From Reichenbachiella sp. 5M10 (lineage in GTDB: Bacteria > Bacteroidota > Bacteroidia > Cytophagales > Cyclobacteriaceae), in contig NZ_MDGR01000007.1 of assembly GCF_002742335.1 (NCBI RefSeq), positions 3,290,501-3,354,500 on the forward strand: a stretch of DNA of 64,000 nucleotides, given 5' to 3'. The position numbers and the translations under genes are program-made. Each line of letters begins with the position of its first letter. The stretch's first letter is position 1. Shown here piece after piece: positions 4,037 to 10,642 of the stretch. The notes beneath the pieces are model-generated. The model searched no databases. It was not told the origin of the DNA and saw nothing but the letters and a program-made list of their open reading frames with translations.

Positions 4037-5908
4037 TTGAACCCAATAGCAAAAATCCCCATTCCCAAATATTGGGCGACATACCTAATCGGCACCATCA
4101 ACATCTGCGTGTACGCGACATATGGTTTCGAAACTATAGACTCCCTCAAACTTCTTCATCTAGGGGGCAACTTTGCCCCCTTCACTTTAGAGAATGAACC
4201 AAGCCGGCTCATCACATCCATGTTCCTCCATGGCAACTTGGTCCACTTGCTTGCCAATATGTATAGCCTATTATACATCGGTCGTCAGGTTGAAGAAATG
4301 ACAAGCCCTCTTAGGTTTTTAGAAATATATCTACTCACAGGCCTCGTCGCAGGGTTGACCAGTCTGAACTACAACCTATTCGTAATCAGTGTGGGAGCTA
4401 GTGGAGCCATTTTTGGAATCTATGGATACTTGATTGTAGACCTCTTCAAAAAGGATCATCATAATCGCTCCTCGGTTCTGATTAACTTCGTCATATATCT
4501 CGTAGTAGTCACCCTTATCGGGTCAAAGCTAAACTTTGACAATGCAGCTCATCTAGGGGGAGCTGCTGCTGGAATTCTTCTCGGGCTACTACAAAATACT
4601 CTAAAATCAAAAGCATCGTATTTGATCCCATTCGGAATCATAGTTGTAGCTTATTTGCTGAACCCAAGGCACCAAGTCGAGTATTTCAAGTTGTATCAAA
4701 AACTGATTGAGGCAGACCAAAAAATAACCACTGTTTTCCACTTGGATGTCAATGACTCTACTCTCTTGGGTACTATCTCAGTACATGACACTATTCCTAA
4801 TCAACTCATTTCTGAATTCCGAGCGTTAGAGTTCGTCCCCCCAAAACTCAGTCAGGACACCTTCTACATTATAAAATATCTTGATATAAAGAATCAAACA
4901 CTAGAATACCTAAAGAAGGGGATTTTACAAGAATCATATATTTACCTTGATAGTATTTCGTGGCTAAACTCTCTCATCGCCAAGCATCCTCCGGTCCAAT
5001 ACAACCTCTATTTTGGAGATGGCTCACCCACAAATCCCCCCATAAAACCTGAATCCACAGAATCCCTCACGTATGTCAAGCAGCACTATGACTCCAATTG
5101 GTTTGAAACCACCTCTCTTGCATATGAATACTATAGGATAGGAAAAAAAGACAGTTTAGGTGATTGGCATGGGTTCGTAGAAGACTACTATTCAAACGGA
5201 GGAATTCAAATGAAGGGGCACTACCATAGAGGTCTTCGAGACGGTATCTTTATATACTACACTCGTGACAGTACATACTCCTCTCTGGGCAGATACGTCT
5301 CTGACTATTCCATTGGAAAATGGGAATCCTATTATAGAAACGGCATCCTCGCCTCTGAAATCAGACATGAAGACCAGTTTTCTTATATCGAAAACACATG
5401 GGATTCTTTGGGACACCCGATGGTTGTTGACAGACAAGGTGAAGAGGTCCTTACCTACCCCAATGGAAGGGTACGATTCAAAAGGTCGATAAAAAATGGT
5501 CTATATCATGGCTTTATAGAAGCCTACTACAAAAACGGAGATTTAAAATTCAAAGAGTATTATCAAAATGGAGAACTAATTAATGGCGTATCGTTTGCTC
5601 ATAACACCGAAAACACATACGACGCAAGCATATATATGCCTTACCCTGAGGGAGGTTTTGACGCTTTCTACAACTACATTCATCAATACAATGAATTAGA
5701 ATCAGACACAGTTGATCAAACAGTCATCATCAAATTTGACGTACACCATTCAGGCAAAATTCATAACATCAGGTTTTTGAAAAGATTTCACCCTCGATAT
5801 GATGAGTACGCCAAGCGACTCCTACTCAATGGTCCAACATGGTTTCCGGCTAAACTTCACGGACTAGAAGACATGAATACCAGCACTAGAGTGTATATAA
5901 AATTTTGA
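4037..5908 (+). CDS. Rhomboid intramembrane serine protease fused to MORN-like repeats and a TonB-C-like domain
   Basis: Residues 1-185 form a rhomboid domain: HxxxN (His70-Asn74) in TM2, catalytic Ser122 in GASGAIFG and catalytic His172 in AAHLGG. Residues 190-345 are a soluble linker. Residues 365-520 hold YwqK/MORN-type repeats (YY.NG / G.Y..G.R.G motifs), and residues 560-623 resemble a TonB C-terminal domain ('IIKFDVHHSG' ... 'GPTWFPAKLHG'). Typical bacterial rhomboids are 200-300 residues, so the 400-residue C-terminal extension is unusual. The start is TTG at 4037, because the next in-frame ATG falls inside TM2. The stop lies 4 bp from the stop of the convergent sigma factor. The protease assignment is strong; the roles of the added domains are inference. 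Confidence 0.85.
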   Translation: MNPIAKIPIPKYWATYLIGTINICVYATYGFETIDSLKLLHLGGNFAPFTLENEPSRLITSMFLHGNLVHLLANMYSLLYIGRQVEEMTSPLRFLEIYLLTGLVAGLTSLNYNLFVISVGASGAIFGIYGYLIVDLFKKDHHNRSSVLINFVIYLVVVTLIGSKLNFDNAAHLGGAAAGILLGLLQNTLKSKASYLIPFGIIVVAYLLNPRHQVEYFKLYQKLIEADQKITTVFHLDVNDSTLLGTISVHDTIPNQLISEFRALEFVPPKLSQDTFYIIKYLDIKNQTLEYLKKGILQESYIYLDSISWLNSLIAKHPPVQYNLYFGDGSPTNPPIKPESTESLTYVKQHYDSNWFETTSLAYEYYRIGKKDSLGDWHGFVEDYYSNGGIQMKGHYHRGLRDGIFIYYTRDSTYSSLGRYVSDYSIGKWESYYRNGILASEIRHEDQFSYIENTWDSLGHPMVVDRQGEEVLTYPNGRVRFKRSIKNGLYHGFIEAYYKNGDLKFKEYYQNGELINGVSFAHNTENTYDASIYMPYPEGGFDAFYNYIHQYNELESDTVDQTVIIKFDVHHSGKIHNIRFLKRFHPRYDEYAKRLLLNGPTWFPAKLHGLEDMNTSTRVYIKF

Positions 5909-5912
5909 TCAA

Positions 5913-6467
5913 CTACCCCTTCAGTAGGTCATTGATGTGCTGACGGGCTCGCTTGATACGCATCTTGACGGCACTCTGAGACAAGCCTAGCGACTGCTGT
6001 ATATCTTGTATGCTGTGTTTGTCTTTGTACTTGAGCAGAAGGATGATCTTCTCGTCCTGAGAGAGGCGATCTAGTAGGGACTCCATCATCGGTATGGTCA
6101 GCTCTTCTTCCATATCTTGATCCTCGACGAGATCTGCGATTTCGTCAATCAGCTTTTCGCTGAGCACCAAGTGCTGACGCTTCTTGTCCTTGCGCATGTG
6201 GTCTATACAGGTGTGGTAAATGATAGAATACAACCACGTCGAAAACCGTGCATCCTTGCGATAGGCCTTGAGCTGCAAAAACACCTTGATCAGAATCTCC
6301 TGTGACAAATCCTTCGCCACATCCTCTGATTTGACCATGCTTTTACACTTGGATAGGATCGTCGCTCGATAGCGCTCCGCTAAAGCACCAAAGTAGCGTG
6401 CATCGCCTTCTTTGATCAAATGAATGACCTCCTCGTCCGTCAAATTCTTGGTTGAAAAAATTGTCAT
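5913..6467 (-). CDS. ECF-type RNA polymerase sigma factor
   Basis: This 184-residue sigma-70 family protein has region 2 at about residues 25-95 ('DLSQEILIKVFLQLKAYRKD', then 'RFSTWLYSI', the -10 recognition and melting helix) and a region 4 helix-turn-helix at about 130-180 ('HSIQDIQQSLGLSQSAVK'). Regions 1 and 3 are absent, as expected for ECF (group 4) sigma factors. No anti-sigma gene follows: the downstream neighbour is the convergent rhomboid gene. Its promoter region (about 55 bp) is shared with the divergent amidoligase operon starting at 6523, which makes that operon a possible target. Identity is firm; regulon is unknown. Confidence 0.92.
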   Translation of the reverse strand: MTIFSTKNLTDEEVIHLIKEGDARYFGALAERYRATILSKCKSMVKSEDVAKDLSQEILIKVFLQLKAYRKDARFSTWLYSIIYHTCIDHMRKDKKRQHLVLSEKLIDEIADLVEDQDMEEELTIPMMESLLDRLSQDEKIILLLKYKDKHSIQDIQQSLGLSQSAVKMRIKRARQHINDLLKG

Positions 6468-6522: not shown

Positions 6523-7242
6523 ATGAGCGATTCTGAAGTCGATGCAAAACAATTGAAACTGCAAATCTTGGCACAGCCCAACGATGTGACCTGTGGACCG
6601 ACGTGCTTGCACTCTGTCTACAGTTATTTCAACGACGACATAGGTCTGGGACAAGTGATCGAAGAGGTCAAGCAGTTTGCTACAGGTGGCACACTAGCCG
6701 TCATGCTGGGCAACCACGCCCTGAGCCGAGGCTACCGTGCCACGATCTACACCTACAATGTCCACATGTTTGACCCGACCTGGTTTTCCTCCAAGGTAGA
6801 CCTTCGTCAAAAACTCATCGAACAGCGTGAGCTCAAGTCCGACGAACGCATACAGTCCTATACTCAGTCGTATTTGCAGTTTTTGGAGCAAGGTGGCAAG
6901 ATCAAATTCGAAGAACTATCGAGTGCGCTGATACGTCGCTTTCTCAACAAAAACATCCCTGTACTGACCGGACTGAGCGCTACCTACCTCTACCACAGTG
7001 CACGAGAGATACCCGAAACCAACGCATACGATGACCTCAGGGGAGAACCTAGTGGACATTTTGTGGTACTCTACGCCTACGACAAGACCAAGCGAGAGAT
7101 CACTATTGCGGACCCGCTCGACCCCAACCCGATCAGTGATCGGGTACAATACTATACAGTCAATACACAGCGTCTGATCAATGCCATCATGCTCGGCATA
7201 GTGACCTATGACGCCAATCTTCTAATCATCGAACCCCAATAA
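6523..7242 (+). CDS. C39-like papain-fold cysteine peptidase of an amidoligase operon
   Basis: This 239-residue cytoplasmic protein has no signal peptide. The peptidase signature is visible: Gln18 (oxyanion) and Cys24 in 'QPNDVTCGPTCL', His179 in 'SGHFVVLY' and Asp197 in 'ITIADP', giving a full Cys-His-Asp triad of the C39/papain-like type. It has no ABC-transporter fusion, unlike bacteriocin-exporting C39 peptidases. It is the first gene of a four-gene operon; the next gene starts 1 bp after its stop. In related clusters such peptidases are thought to cleave or transfer the amide made by the neighbouring ligases. Fold assignment is good; the reaction is inferred. Confidence 0.82.
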   Translation: MSDSEVDAKQLKLQILAQPNDVTCGPTCLHSVYSYFNDDIGLGQVIEEVKQFATGGTLAVMLGNHALSRGYRATIYTYNVHMFDPTWFSSKVDLRQKLIEQRELKSDERIQSYTQSYLQFLEQGGKIKFEELSSALIRRFLNKNIPVLTGLSATYLYHSAREIPETNAYDDLRGEPSGHFVVLYAYDKTKREITIADPLDPNPISDRVQYYTVNTQRLINAIMLGIVTYDANLLIIEPQ

Positions 7243-7243
7243 A

Positions 7244-8686
7244 GTGCAAAAAATAATCGTAACCGAAAACCCCAGCAAATGGAACCTAGAACTGCTCGAT
7301 GCACGCGTCGTATCAGCAGAAGACTACCTCAATTCGGAAGAGTGGAAGCATCAAAAACACGCCAAGGTAATCAATCTCTGCGGCAGCTACCAATACCAAA
7401 GTACGGGCTACTACGTGTCCATGCTCGCGGATGCGCGTGGACAAAAAGTCATCCCCTCTACAGCGACGATGCAGGACTGCAAATTCCACCACATCATCAG
7501 ACAAGACACCGTCGATTTTGAGGAAGTCATACTCCCCATACTCGACAAAGTCGATGAACAGGAAATTGAATTCGGGATCTACTACGGCTTCACCGAAAAC
7601 CCCACATTGGGAAAAATCGGTGCACTGCTGTTCAACCTATTCAACATGCCGCTGCTCAAGGTCAAGTTTCAGAAAAAAGACAAATGGCACCTCAAATGGT
7701 TGCGCCCGGTCAACCTCAAGGACTTGGACCAAGAGGAAACCAATCAGATGATCAACTGCCTCACACTGTTTTTGAGTGGTAAAAAAGTCGTCAAAAAAAA
7801 CTTCAGCAGGAAGAAGTATGACCTAGCCATACTGGTCAATCCTGATGAAGAAACCCCTCCCTCTGACGCCAAGGCTTTGCAAAAGTTCATCAAGGCGGCA
7901 GACAAGATCGGTTTCACCACAGAGATGATCACCAAGACAGACTTTGGCAAAATCTCGTCCTTCGACGCGCTGTTTATCCGGGAGACGACCAATGTCAACC
8001 ACCACACCTTCCGTTTTGCACGCAAAGCGGAGTACGAAGGGCTCGCTGTGATCGATGACCCTAGCTCTATACTCAAGTGTACCAACAAAGTCTACCTCCA
8101 AGAACTGATGACCGAAAACGGTATCCCCATGCCAAAAGCATGCATCGTGAGCAAAAACCAAAAGGTAAAACCTGAATTGGAATACCCCTTCATCATCAAG
8201 CAACCCGATGGGTCGTTTAGCAAAGGTGTCAAGAAAGTCTCCACCCCAGAAGAGTACCAACTCTACCTCAAGGACTTTTTGCAAACTAGCGACTTGGCCA
8301 TTATCCAAGAGTTCATGCCCACGGACTTTGATTGGCGTGTAGGCATGCTCGGTGGACAAGCCATCTATGTCTGCAAATACTACATGGCACGCAACCACTG
8401 GCAAATCGTCGATTGGAAATCCAAAGGGGCTGGGCGAGAAGGGAAAAGTGAAACCATCGCGCTCTCCGAAGCACCTCCCGCACTGATCAAAGTAGCCCAA
8501 AAAGCCACCAAACTGATCGGTCAAGGGCTATACGGTGTGGACATCAAACAGAAAGGCAACAAATACTACGTCATAGAGGTCAACGACAATCCAAGCATCG
8601 ATGCTGGAGTCGAGGACAAACAAGGCAAAAACCTCATCTATGAACAAATCATGCAGCATTTAATGAACATTGTATCCAACAAATAA
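7244..8686 (+). CDS. RimK-type ATP-grasp amidoligase with N-terminal RLAN-like domain
   Basis: This 480-residue protein starts at a GTG placed 1 bp after the upstream stop. Residues 1 to about 170 match the RimK-like ATP-grasp N-terminal (RLAN) region ('VINLCGSYQYQSTGYYVSML', 'VIPSTATMQD'). Residues 195-480 are an ATP-grasp fold with 'YPFIIKQPDGSFSKGV' (ATP-binding lysine and glycine loop) and 'VIEVNDNPSIDAGVED' (Mg-binding Glu/Asn near the C-terminus). RimK-type enzymes join an amino acid, often glutamate, to a carboxylate through an acyl phosphate. Together with the GCS2 ligase and two hydrolases it forms a predicted peptide or amide biosynthesis operon. The actual substrate is unknown. Confidence 0.88.
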   Translation: MQKIIVTENPSKWNLELLDARVVSAEDYLNSEEWKHQKHAKVINLCGSYQYQSTGYYVSMLADARGQKVIPSTATMQDCKFHHIIRQDTVDFEEVILPILDKVDEQEIEFGIYYGFTENPTLGKIGALLFNLFNMPLLKVKFQKKDKWHLKWLRPVNLKDLDQEETNQMINCLTLFLSGKKVVKKNFSRKKYDLAILVNPDEETPPSDAKALQKFIKAADKIGFTTEMITKTDFGKISSFDALFIRETTNVNHHTFRFARKAEYEGLAVIDDPSSILKCTNKVYLQELMTENGIPMPKACIVSKNQKVKPELEYPFIIKQPDGSFSKGVKKVSTPEEYQLYLKDFLQTSDLAIIQEFMPTDFDWRVGMLGGQAIYVCKYYMARNHWQIVDWKSKGAGREGKSETIALSEAPPALIKVAQKATKLIGQGLYGVDIKQKGNKYYVIEVNDNPSIDAGVEDKQGKNLIYEQIMQHLMNIVSNK

Positions 8687-8687
8687 T

Positions 8688-9947
8688 ATGAAAGCACATT
8701 CGAAACGCCTACACCTCTACCAGGCCTACGGCATAGAACTAGAATACATGATCGTCGACCGGGACACACTGGCCGTCAAACCTATCGCTGACCAATTGCT
8801 AGCCGATGCAGCTGGCAAGCAGACCGATACCTACACCCATGGTATGGTCACTTGGTCCAATGAACTCGTGCTACACGTCATCGAGCTCAAATGCACCGAG
8901 CCCGTGTCGGATTTGGTAGCTCTCAACCGTGCCTTTCACGAAAACATCCTGCTCATCAATCACCTCCTCGAGAAGTACAATGCACGCCTACTCGGTTCGG
9001 CTGCTCACCCGTGGATGAACCCAGAGACAGACACCTACCTCTGGCCTCATGGCAATGCCGACATCTACCAAACCTACGACCGCATCTTTGGCTGCAAAGG
9101 TCATGGATGGAGCAACCTACAGAGCACACATTTGAACTTGCCGTTTTACGATGACGAGGAGTTTGCTCCCTTGCATGCTGCGGCACGTGTGCTTCTGCCT
9201 CTATTGCCCGCGTTGAGTGCGAGTTCGCCGATTCTTGATGGGCATTTCACCGGCTACCAAGACAAGCGAATGTCCTACTACAAGATGAACCAGCATCGCA
9301 TCCCTTCGATCACGGGCAAAGTCATTCCTGAGCGCGCCTTCTCCAAACGAGAGTATGGCAAACTCATCTATGAGAAAATCGCCGAAGATTTGGTGGCCTA
9401 TGACACAGAGAGGCTCTTGGATCCAGTATGGGTCAACTCCCGCGGTATCATTGCGCGGTTTGACAGAGGATCAATCGAGATACGGATCTTGGACATCCAA
9501 GAAAACCCAGGTGCAGACTTGGCCATCATTGCCTTGATCATCCACGTGCTCAAACTGATGACAGATGGCAAGCTGGCACCTCTCCATGACTTGATGGCTT
9601 GGGAAAAAGAGCCTCTCTATGACCTCCTCAATGAGGTCATCAAAAAAGGACAAGACACCCTCATCAAGGACGAAGCATACTTGCGCATGTTTGGATGTAC
9701 CCAAAGTAGCCTCCCCATCACCGCACTGTGGCAGCTACTCATCGACCAAGTACAGGCCGTCTATCCTACGGAGATCGCTCCTTGGCTGCCGACATTGGAC
9801 AAAATCATGTCACAAGGTACGCTCTCAAAGCGCATTCTCTCCATGGTGGATGGAGAATACTCGCAGGACAACCTCCGCTTGCTCTGCCGTGAACTGTCAG
9901 AAAATCTCGAGGAAAACAAAATGCTCAGTGTATGCGAAACCGTATAA
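8688..9947 (+). CDS. GCS2-family carboxylate-amine ligase (glutamate-cysteine ligase-like)
   Basis: This 419-residue protein belongs to the GCS2 glutamine-synthetase-like ligase superfamily. Landmarks are 'GIELEYMIVD' near residue 16 (metal-binding glutamates), 'HVIELKCTEP' near residue 66, and 'FDRGSIEIRILDIQENP' near residue 265. Family members activate a glutamate gamma-carboxylate with ATP and couple it to an amine. The ATG at 8688, 1 bp after the upstream stop, is preferred over an in-frame TTG at 8670. The 3' end overlaps the next gene by 16 bp, which implies translational coupling. In this context it probably acts on the same compound as the ATP-grasp ligase rather than making glutathione, since no glutathione synthetase is present here. 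Confidence 0.87.
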   Translation: MKAHSKRLHLYQAYGIELEYMIVDRDTLAVKPIADQLLADAAGKQTDTYTHGMVTWSNELVLHVIELKCTEPVSDLVALNRAFHENILLINHLLEKYNARLLGSAAHPWMNPETDTYLWPHGNADIYQTYDRIFGCKGHGWSNLQSTHLNLPFYDDEEFAPLHAAARVLLPLLPALSASSPILDGHFTGYQDKRMSYYKMNQHRIPSITGKVIPERAFSKREYGKLIYEKIAEDLVAYDTERLLDPVWVNSRGIIARFDRGSIEIRILDIQENPGADLAIIALIIHVLKLMTDGKLAPLHDLMAWEKEPLYDLLNEVIKKGQDTLIKDEAYLRMFGCTQSSLPITALWQLLIDQVQAVYPTEIAPWLPTLDKIMSQGTLSKRILSMVDGEYSQDNLRLLCRELSENLEENKMLSVCETV

Positions 9948-10642
9948 TTATCAGTTGTGAGCACGCAGGCAACTACGTGCCACTAGGGTACCAGCATTTG
10001 TTTGCTCAGGAATCTGAAGTATTGGAGACACATCGAGGGTACGACATAGGTGCCCTCGATGTGGCCAAATATATGGCCAAGCAATTGGGCATCCATTTGC
10101 ACTATCAAAAGATCAGCAGGTTGCTCATCGAGTCCAACCGCTCGACAACCCACCCCGAACTCTATTCTGAATATTCGCGTGGACTGAGTGCAGAAGCCAA
10201 GGCAATCTTGCAGGCCAAGTACTACAACCCCTACCGGACAGCCATCGAGCAAGAAATCAATCGGGCGAAAGCCAATGGATCACTGTGCATACACGTCTCT
10301 GTCCATTCCTTCACTCCCGTCCTCAACGGGAGCGAACGCCTCGTAGACATTGGGTTGCTCTTTGATGATCAGCGACAGCCCGAACAGCAATTCTGTCATG
10401 ATTGGAAGCCACTACTCGCTGCGGCTCTGCCCGAGCAGGTCGTCCTCTACAACTGCCCCTACCACGGAGCGGATGATGGGCTGACGACTTACTTGCGCAC
10501 ACGTTTTACTCCGGAGGAGTATCTTGGAATCGAGATCGAGATCAATCAAAAATACGCTCATACCACGGCACTCCAAAACATCCGGCAAGCGCTGACATTG
10601 ACCTTGCAGTCCTTGACTTCTAGTGAACTGATGAAATCATGA
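9932..10642 (+). CDS. N-formylglutamate amidohydrolase family protein
   Basis: This 236-residue protein carries the FGase signatures: 'ISCEHAGNYVP' at the N-terminus, 'IHVSVHSFTPV' near residue 120, 'DIGLLFDD' near 142 and 'GIEIEINQKY' near 205. The histidines and glutamates in these blocks build the metal site of a zinc carboxypeptidase-like fold. The classical enzyme hydrolyses N-formyl-glutamate in histidine degradation, but no hut genes are nearby. As the fourth gene of an amidoligase operon (ATG inside the end of the GCS2 gene) it more likely hydrolyses an amide linked to the operon's own product. Family call is firm, physiological substrate inferred. Confidence 0.85.
   Translation: MRNRIIISCEHAGNYVPLGYQHLFAQESEVLETHRGYDIGALDVAKYMAKQLGIHLHYQKISRLLIESNRSTTHPELYSEYSRGLSAEAKAILQAKYYNPYRTAIEQEINRAKANGSLCIHVSVHSFTPVLNGSERLVDIGLLFDDQRQPEQQFCHDWKPLLAAALPEQVVLYNCPYHGADDGLTTYLRTRFTPEEYLGIEIEINQKYAHTTALQNIRQALTLTLQSLTSSELMKS

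What the first reader, a model, noticed from the sequence alone, without database searches (positions are those of the whole stretch)
6523..10642. Compact amidoligase operon likely making or remodelling an unknown peptide or amide
Four genes with 1-bp gaps or overlaps encode a C39-like cysteine peptidase (Cys24-His179-Asp197), an RLAN/RimK ATP-grasp ligase, a GCS2 ligase and an N-formylglutamate amidohydrolase. Two ligases plus two amide hydrolases suggest a built-and-trimmed product. Comparative genomics has predicted such clusters, but I know of no characterised product. There is no exporter or precursor peptide nearby, which favours an intracellular metabolite or protein tag.
Basis: partly seen in the sequence, partly recalled or inferred. 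Interest (0 to 1): 0.7.

Follow-up and report, generated by a model that had tools for sequence, protein, structure and literature searches.

The report
Conserved two-ligase amide-building operon
Four neighbouring genes in a Bacteroidota genome form a widely conserved but biochemically unstudied operon that probably builds and later trims a small capped peptide or amide; a related version replaces one of its ligases with an acetyltransferase, which hints at how it works.

Summary
Four co-directional genes (C39-like cysteine peptidase, RLAN+ATP-grasp ligase "RLANK", GCS2 ligase, N-formylglutamate-amidohydrolase-like "NFGA") lie at 6523-10642 with 1-bp gaps and a 16-bp overlap. The cluster is a real unit. 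In 198 Bacteroidota genomes, 16 carry non-GNAT RLANK; all 16 also carry this GCS2 and C39, and none of the other 182 has a strong match to either. Of 80 GCS2-seeded loci, 78 have RLANK, 63 NFGA and 47 C39. No fifth gene or small ORF is conserved. In one family GCS2 is in 22 of 22 genomes with short RLANK and 0 of 11 with long, GNAT-sized RLANK, though few genera are involved. No position separates the two RLANK classes. Best reading: RLANK makes a common amide, GCS2 gamma-glutamylates (GNAT acetylates) an amine, and the hydrolases trim. All catalytic steps are inferred and the substrate is unknown. Glutathione replacement is unlikely because BshC is nearly universal. Related clusters were predicted before (recalled).

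The parts
6523..7242 (+). C39-like papain-fold cysteine peptidase (239 aa), probable cytoplasmic amide hydrolase or transferase; Gln18, Cys24, His179, Asp197
   Evidence: Pfam PF13529 2e-10; residues invariant in 16 rows; present beside RLANK in 47 of 80 GCS2-seeded loci
7244..8686 (+). RLANK: RLAN N-terminal domain plus RimK/LysX-like ATP-grasp ligase (480 aa, GTG start)
   Evidence: Pfam RLAN 1.8e-42, RimK 2.3e-8; next to GCS2 in 78 of 80 GCS2-seeded loci; 58 positions near-invariant in both GCS2-type and GNAT-type RLANKs
8688..9947 (+). GCS2 carboxylate-amine ligase (419 aa), predicted gamma-glutamyl (or related acyl) ligase
   Evidence: Pfam GCS2 2.6e-26; Gly15/Glu17/Glu19, His148/Asn150, Arg194, Glu264/Arg266 invariant in 42 rows; their catalytic roles are recalled from the family, not tested
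9932..10642 (+). NFGA: N-formylglutamate-amidohydrolase-like amide hydrolase (236 aa), zinc enzyme by family precedent
   Evidence: Pfam FGase 3.1e-22; Glu10/His11, Asp38, His121, His125 invariant in 9 rows, one of them truncated; closest solved chain 2odf, 1.1e-34, hypothetical protein Atu2144

Best explanation
A self-contained, probably cytoplasmic amidoligase pathway that assembles a small N-capped peptide or amide and also turns it over. RLANK uses ATP to activate a carboxylate and joins it to an amino acid (family precedent: RimK, LysX). GCS2 uses ATP to acylate an amine, most likely with the gamma-carboxyl of glutamate. In sister systems a RimI-like GNAT does the capping with an acetyl group instead. 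C39, which occurs in some systems of both cap types, probably cleaves or transfers the amide made by RLANK. NFGA, seen beside RLANK only in the GCS2 type, probably removes or trims the glutamyl/acyl cap. Shown here: gene content, linkage, conservation of residues and the GCS2/GNAT alternation. Inferred: every catalytic step, the order of steps and the roles of the hydrolases. Unknown: the core substrate and the amino acid added.
For: In 198 Bacteroidota genomes, 16 of 16 with non-GNAT RLANK have strong GCS2 and strong C39, and none of the other 182 has a strong match to either (in G179 the GCS2 is split over two frames). In 92 genomes of one family, short-frame RLANK has GCS2 in 22 of 22, C39 in 20 of 22 (one partial, one with an internal stop) and NFGA in 19 of 22; long-frame RLANK has 0 of 11 for each. 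GNAT partners come in three gene structures: fused to RLANK, fused to a C39-type DUF3335 domain, separate overlapping gene. In 4 of 4 GNAT-bearing proteins scanned the acetyltransferase part scores best to RimI, an N-terminal amine acetyltransferase; 1 of the 4 is over the cut-off. RLANK: 58 positions near-invariant in both classes, and no position that separates them (32 GCS2-type, 9 GNAT-type rows). No conserved fifth gene or small ORF. At least one of the two hydrolases is present in 75 of 78 RLANK-GCS2 loci. Precedent for the logic: NAGGN synthesis, where Ngg N-acetylates one Gln and joins a second (PMC8070244, passages read).
Against: No substrate or product evidence. GCS2, NFGA and C39 score below every NCBIfam cut-off listed, and so does RLANK in the 25 of 37 rows shown, so donors are assumed. 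The label changes on the RLANK tree could be as few as 1 by well-supported branches, and in the family survey the 22 short and 11 long frames come from only 5 and 2 genera, so exclusivity may largely reflect descent. Six of the 11 long frames were judged GNAT-fused by length only. Whether GCS2-type genomes hold a RimI-like GNAT elsewhere was not tested, nor whether the GNAT-type plasmid hosts or G326 hold GCS2 elsewhere. No GCS2, C39 or NFGA lies near RLANK in a P. aeruginosa and an Aeromonas plasmid record and a phage-like contig. Two GCS2 loci lack RLANK. C39 is absent from all GNAT-RLANK fusion genomes searched (0 of 6, 0 of 11, sharing 5 genomes). The window-type C39 model matches the C39-type half of the G155 fusion (3.8e-9) but not those of Azospirillum and Tistrella at 1e-3. 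NFGA stands alone in 5 of 12 genomes of one genus without RLANK.
Confidence: 0.48

Rival explanations
1. Protein tagging: RLANK extends the C-terminus (or a side chain) of a cellular protein, as RimK does with ribosomal protein S6; GCS2 or GNAT modifies an N-terminus, and C39/NFGA remove the tags.
For: The ATP-grasp half is nearest to RimK and LysX, which act on protein C-termini (LysX recalled; RimK/RimB in PMC12239564 passages). The GNAT partner is RimI-like, and RimI acetylates a ribosomal protein (family name). A peptidase gene is present in 47 of 80 loci.
Against: RLANK misses the RimK family cut-off (81.4 of 143.4 bits). GCS2 enzymes I recall act on free amino acids. RLANK is patchy (23 of 198 genomes), whereas a ribosomal target would be universal.
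Confidence: 0.22
2. Glutathione-like thiol synthesis: GCS2 makes gamma-Glu-Cys and RLANK adds a third residue.
For: The GCS2 plus ATP-grasp pairing mirrors GshA/GshB, and weak GshA model hits exist (TIGR02048 41.5 bits). Papain-fold partners recall phytochelatin synthase (from memory).
Against: Below all GshA/EgtA cut-offs listed. BshC for bacillithiol is over cut-off in 192 of 198 genomes, including this genome, so a thiol is probably already supplied. No fifth gene is conserved nearby.
Confidence: 0.06
3. Amine or amide catabolism/detoxification: gamma-glutamylation of an incoming amine followed by hydrolysis, as in Puu-type pathways.
For: GCS2 with amide hydrolases; Iyer et al. 2009 predicted amine-utilisation clusters (recalled, paper not held).
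Against: No fifth gene family, hence no oxidase, dehydrogenase or transporter, is conserved in the neighbourhoods. The second ligase and the C39 would be superfluous.
Confidence: 0.12
4. Ribosomal peptide (graspetide-like) maturation with a precursor encoded elsewhere.
For: An ATP-grasp ligase beside a C39-type peptidase resembles RiPP loci; C39 peptidase-transporters head the list of graspetide-associated families in PMC8939145 (passages).
Against: No conserved small ORF (at most 4 of 94 loci share one) and no conserved C39-ABC exporter. GCS2 is not a RiPP enzyme that I recall. The C39 is a stand-alone form, not transporter-fused.
Confidence: 0.04

Closest known systems
NAGGN (N-acetylglutaminylglutamine amide) pathway, Ngg/AsnO/peptidase
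   Same: Small capped peptide made by an enzyme that both N-acylates and forms a peptide bond, with a peptidase gene in the operon (PMC8070244 passages).
   Different: The cap enzyme here is GCS2, not GNAT; no asparagine-synthase-like gene is conserved (no fifth gene); the GNAT-C39 protein of Azospirillum scores 37.7 against a 569-bit cut-off for TIGR03103.
Glutathione synthesis (GshA of the GCS2 family + ATP-grasp GshB)
   Same: GCS2 ligase together with an ATP-grasp ligase.
   Different: RLAN domain, two amide hydrolases, cut-offs not met, BshC already encoded.
RimK/RimB system (S6 polyglutamylation and its protease)
   Same: RimK-type ligase with an opposing peptidase (PMC12239564 passages).
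   Different: Retropepsin-type versus papain-type peptidase; GCS2/NFGA have no counterpart; RimK cut-off not met.
GNAT-DUF3335 + RLAN/RimK clusters (Iyer et al. 2009, paper not held; DUF3335-GNAT fusion noted in a PMC10318531 passage)
   Same: RLANK is homologous. The C39-type half shares the motifs TCGP, GG, H-V-V and DP in an alignment, and the G155 one is matched by the window-type C39 model (3.8e-9).
   Different: GNAT is present there, GCS2 and NFGA here; the Azospirillum and Tistrella C39-type halves are not matched by the window-type C39 model at 1e-3.
Butirosin BtrJ/BtrH/BtrG gamma-glutamyl protection logic (recalled)
   Same: ATP-grasp, papain-fold transferase and removal of a gamma-glutamyl group.
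   Different: No carrier protein or aminoglycoside genes conserved here; homology not tested.

Membership tests
RLAN/ATP-grasp amidoligase clusters predicted by comparative genomics (recalled; source paper not held) | RLAN domain fused to a RimK-type ATP-grasp domain | tested here: met
   Pfam RLAN 145 bits and RimK 34.3 bits, both over cut-off
RLAN/ATP-grasp amidoligase clusters predicted by comparative genomics (recalled; source paper not held) | Conserved linkage with a papain-fold peptidase and/or a second ligase | tested here: met
RimK family alpha-L-glutamate ligase (TIGR00768) | Score over curated cut-off | tested here: not met
   81.4 of 143.4 bits
LysX (TIGR02144) | Score over curated cut-off | tested here: not met
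   85.2 of 275.6 bits
Glutamate-cysteine ligase GshA/EgtA | Score over curated cut-offs TIGR02048, TIGR03444 | tested here: not met
   41.5 of 249.05 and 18.8 of 370.8 bits
Glutamate-cysteine ligase GshA/EgtA | Forms gamma-Glu-Cys | not testable with these tools
   Needs an enzyme assay
HutG N-formylglutamate deformylase (TIGR02017) | Score over curated cut-off | tested here: not met
   23.9 of 278.75 bits
Bacteriocin C39 leader peptidase | Fused to or beside an ABC exporter, with a precursor peptide gene | tested here: not met
   Stand-alone 239 aa; no conserved fifth gene or small ORF; precursors elsewhere in the genome not searched
NAGGN synthetase (TIGR03103) | Window RLANK scores over curated cut-off | tested here: inconclusive
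   Not among the best 25 of 37 rows shown for RLANK, so any score is weak, but the remaining rows were not seen; GNAT-C39 protein of Azospirillum 37.7 of 569 bits
Known anti-phage defence systems (PADLOC) | Match to a PADLOC-DB model | tested here: not met
   0 families for 4 proteins at E<=0.001

The most novel reading that the evidence does not exclude
A modular, widely distributed cytoplasmic pathway for an undescribed class of capped small peptides or amides, in which one common ligase core (RLANK with an optional C39 amidase) is paired with interchangeable capping enzymes: gamma-glutamyl (GCS2, with NFGA as its remover) or acetyl (RimI-like GNAT). The cap, not the core, differs between lineages.
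Probability: 0.38. Interest if true: 0.72.

Novelty: new variant of a known kind. Interest (0 to 1): 0.52.

Why it matters
The operon recurs in Bacteroidota genera that I know, from their names, as marine, soil and haloalkaliphilic, and turns up in the phylum of G198 (labelled Myxococcota by the tree tool) and in a Legionella record. No product was found in the literature searched (nine searches). If the cap-swap reading is right, it predicts a class of undetected N-gamma-glutamyl or N-acetyl metabolites and gives a direct test: the same core ion with two different caps in GCS2-type and GNAT-type species.

Tried and rejected
Glutathione substitute: tested through BshC, over cut-off in 192 of 198 genomes, so unlikely. 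Ribosomal precursor: small-ORF clustering over 94 loci gave at most 4 loci per family. Defence system: PADLOC empty. A link to the divergent ECF sigma gene (window 5913-6467) or to the DUF155 gene: their sequence clusters recur in 21 and 23 of 103 regions, mostly records labelled as Cytophagales-type, so not taken as part of the unit. Number of GCS2/GNAT switches: the tree needs 4 changes for the GNAT label but its starred branches force only 1, so repeated swapping is not claimed. Residues that separate the two RLANK classes: none at the thresholds used (the fragmentary L046 row was left out of the GNAT group). Structure prediction: planned for GCS2 and RLANK, machine busy in every attempt, so no fold search was made. 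Literature: nine searches, listings seen, passages of six papers read; none names a characterised product of this cluster. The four papers listed for PA1345 (a locus name I recalled for the P. aeruginosa relative) were not opened. The key paper (Iyer et al. 2009) is not held. Promoter- and terminator-like sites were at chance level. The L104 and L112 loci (GCS2 without RLANK in the locus) were not explained. A solved-structure hit of GCS2 to a designed helical bundle (E 0.033) was set aside as chance.
Full report
WHAT IS THERE. Four + strand genes occupy 6523-10642: C39 (6523-7242), RLANK (7244-8686, GTG start), GCS2 (8688-9947) and NFGA (9932-10642), with gaps of 1 and 1 bp and a 16-bp overlap. 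All four match their Pfam families over the cut-offs. The C39 residues Gln18, Cys24, His179 and Asp197 are invariant in 16 aligned rows. RLANK, GCS2 and NFGA have sets of invariant residues in 38, 42 and 9 aligned rows (one NFGA row is truncated). No N-terminus looks hydrophobic (best 10-residue mean 0.56-0.93 near the start). Two internal stretches do reach 19-residue means of 1.82 (C39) and 1.65 (GCS2), so a membrane contact is not strictly excluded. No signal-peptide predictor was available. I take all four as probably cytoplasmic. The genome has one GCS2 match.

IS IT A UNIT. Seeding with RLAN in 198 evenly drawn Bacteroidota genomes gave 23 genomes. Sixteen have RLANK without a fused or C39-fused GNAT, and all 16 have GCS2 (E below 1e-80; in G179 split in two frames) and C39 (E below 1e-100). 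None of the other 182 has a strong match to either: 6 have weak GCS2 hits and 20 weak C39 hits, all with E between 1e-7 and 1e-3, set aside as other members of those superfamilies. NFGA is in 9 of the 16, strongly in 2 others (G081, G151) and weakly in 2 more. Gene sets of the 80: C39-RLANK-GCS2-NFGA 35, RLANK-GCS2-NFGA 28, C39-RLANK-GCS2 12, RLANK-GCS2 3, GCS2 alone 2. Some loci are cut by contig ends, and in two (L067, L075) NFGA is near but not next to GCS2. Beyond the four families the commonest neighbours recur in 25, 23 and 21 of 103 regions. No small ORF recurs in more than 4 of 94 loci. C39 has no match anywhere in three genomes checked whole: L116 (Psychroserpens), L104 and L112 (two Cyclobacteriaceae MAGs, possibly incomplete).

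THE PARTNER SWAP. Six of the other seven RLAN genomes in the 198 have an RLANK of 648-663 aa. Three were scanned with Pfam and are GNAT-RLAN-ATP-grasp fusions. All six match a GNAT model, which was built partly from them. The seventh (G155) has RLAN and ATP-grasp in two overlapping frames next to a GNAT-DUF3335 (C39-type) fusion. None of the seven has a strong match to GCS2, C39 or NFGA in the whole genome (G155 has a weak C39 hit, in its GNAT-C39 fusion). Outside Bacteroidota, among 148 genomes of the phylum of G198 (record labelled Deltaproteobacteria; Myxococcota by the tree tool), 4 have RLAN. Three are GCS2-type (L122, L137, L139) and one has a GNAT gene overlapping the RLANK end and no GCS2 in 16 kb (L138). 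Of 11 plasmid records with RLANK I opened 5. Azospirillum and Tistrella have GNAT-C39 fusions beside RLANK and no GCS2 in the stretch. Legionella adelaidensis has RLANK-GCS2-NFGA. P. aeruginosa and Aeromonas have no GCS2, C39 or NFGA near RLANK; the P. aeruginosa annotation shows no GNAT either, and the Aeromonas stretch was not screened for one. In the family of G061, 33 of 92 genomes have RLAN. Of these, 22 have short-frame RLANK (488-551 aa, one cut at 211), from 5 genera, and all 22 have GCS2. The other 11 have long-frame RLANK (657-675 aa), from 2 genera, and none has GCS2. C39 is in 20 of 22 against 0 of 11 (G370 is a partial match, G395 has an internal stop). NFGA is in 19 of 22 against 0 of 11. 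Two fragmented genomes (G379, G383) have GCS2 without a RLAN match, and 5 of 12 genomes of one genus have NFGA alone. Five of the 11 long frames were checked with the GNAT model; the other six are inferred from length. The GNAT model was run on the window and L025-L126: outside the GNAT-type loci it hit one ORF, weakly, on the opposite strand (28 bits, L076). It was not run on L127-L141. A GNAT elsewhere in GCS2-type genomes was not sought. The combinatorial values printed ignore shared ancestry and are not used as probabilities.

WHAT THE SWAP SUGGESTS. Comparing 32 GCS2-type and 9 GNAT-type RLANKs, 58 positions are near-invariant in both (at least 97% and 99%), and none is fixed differently between the classes (at least 90% and 85%). 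RLANK therefore probably does the same reaction in both. What changes is the enzyme that acylates an amine: a GCS2 ligase (glutamate donor in the members I recall) or a GNAT closest to RimI, which acetylates an N-terminal amine (best hit in 4 of 4 proteins scanned; the Azospirillum domain reaches 88.0 bits against a cut-off of 86.4, the other three are below it). C39-type domains occur in both classes, but not in the GNAT-RLANK fusion genomes (0 of 6, 0 of 11, sharing 5 genomes). The link between the two C39 types rests on a model match for G155 (3.8e-9) and on shared motifs; the Azospirillum and Tistrella halves did not reach 1e-3. On this basis C39 plausibly acts on the RLANK-made amide. NFGA accompanies RLANK only in the GCS2 class in these samples, so it plausibly acts on the glutamyl side. 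At least one of C39/NFGA is present in 75 of 78 RLANK-GCS2 loci. All this is inference from gene content; no activity was measured.

RIVALS. Protein tagging remains the strongest rival, because RimK/LysX and RimI are protein-directed enzymes. Glutathione replacement is unlikely: BshC is over cut-off in 192 of 198 genomes, including this one, and GCS2 is below all GshA/EgtA cut-offs listed. A RiPP lacks a conserved precursor and exporter in cis. Amine catabolism lacks any conserved oxidase or transporter.

RELATION TO THE KNOWN. None of the four proteins meets a curated NCBIfam cut-off in the rows shown (best 25 of 37 for RLANK; C39 14 of 150 bits, GCS2 at best 54.3 of 176.4, NFGA 23.9 of 278.75). 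Solved relatives are mostly distant: RLANK to RimK/LysX (3vpd 5e-10, 1uc8 1e-8), GCS2 to plant GCL and YbdK only at E 0.3-0.7, C39 to ComA-type peptidases (1.5e-4), NFGA to Atu2144 (2odf, 1e-34). [quoted passage not shown] The DUF3335-GNAT fusion is noted in PMC10318531 (passage), which cites Iyer et al. 2009; I recall that paper as the source of the RLAN name and of predicted clusters of this kind, but could not read it. Nine literature searches showed no characterised product.

LIMITS. Structure prediction could not be run. The number of switches on the RLANK tree is unresolved. Pseudomonadota were sampled only through plasmid records. Verdict: a real, conserved, uncharacterised amidoligase operon; the GCS2/GNAT alternation is the new and testable clue.

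Noticed in passing
L132:7998-9158 (IMG/VR contig): A contig with phage-like replication genes (judged by eye) carries a lone RLANK gene of 386 aa (47% identity to the window's), with no GCS2, C39 or NFGA match beside it.
   Followed up: partly
window 5913-6467 (-): A divergent ECF sigma factor gene sits 55 bp upstream of the operon; members of the same sequence cluster recur in 21 of 103 regions, upstream or downstream.
   Followed up: partly
L048:4405-5193 and relatives: A DUF155 (RMND1/Mrx10-like) gene cluster is in 23 of 103 regions, directly beside C39 in many of them.
   Followed up: no
L104 and L112, about 7971-9242: GCS2 without RLANK in the locus and without C39 in the genome held, at a position that in related loci holds C39-RLANK-GCS2; RLANK elsewhere in these genomes was not searched for.
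   Followed up: partly
L025 (G179): GCS2 and RLANK are each split over overlapping frames; decay or sequencing error not distinguished.
   Followed up: no
L028 (G070): NFGA ends early (190 aa) with a further short piece downstream in another frame.
   Followed up: no
window 4037-5908 (+): A rhomboid protease domain in a 623-aa protein with MORN-type repeat similarity below cut-off.
   Followed up: no
L140, L141 (G081, G151): NFGA of this operon type standing alone in genomes without RLANK; 5 of 12 genomes of that genus.
   Followed up: partly
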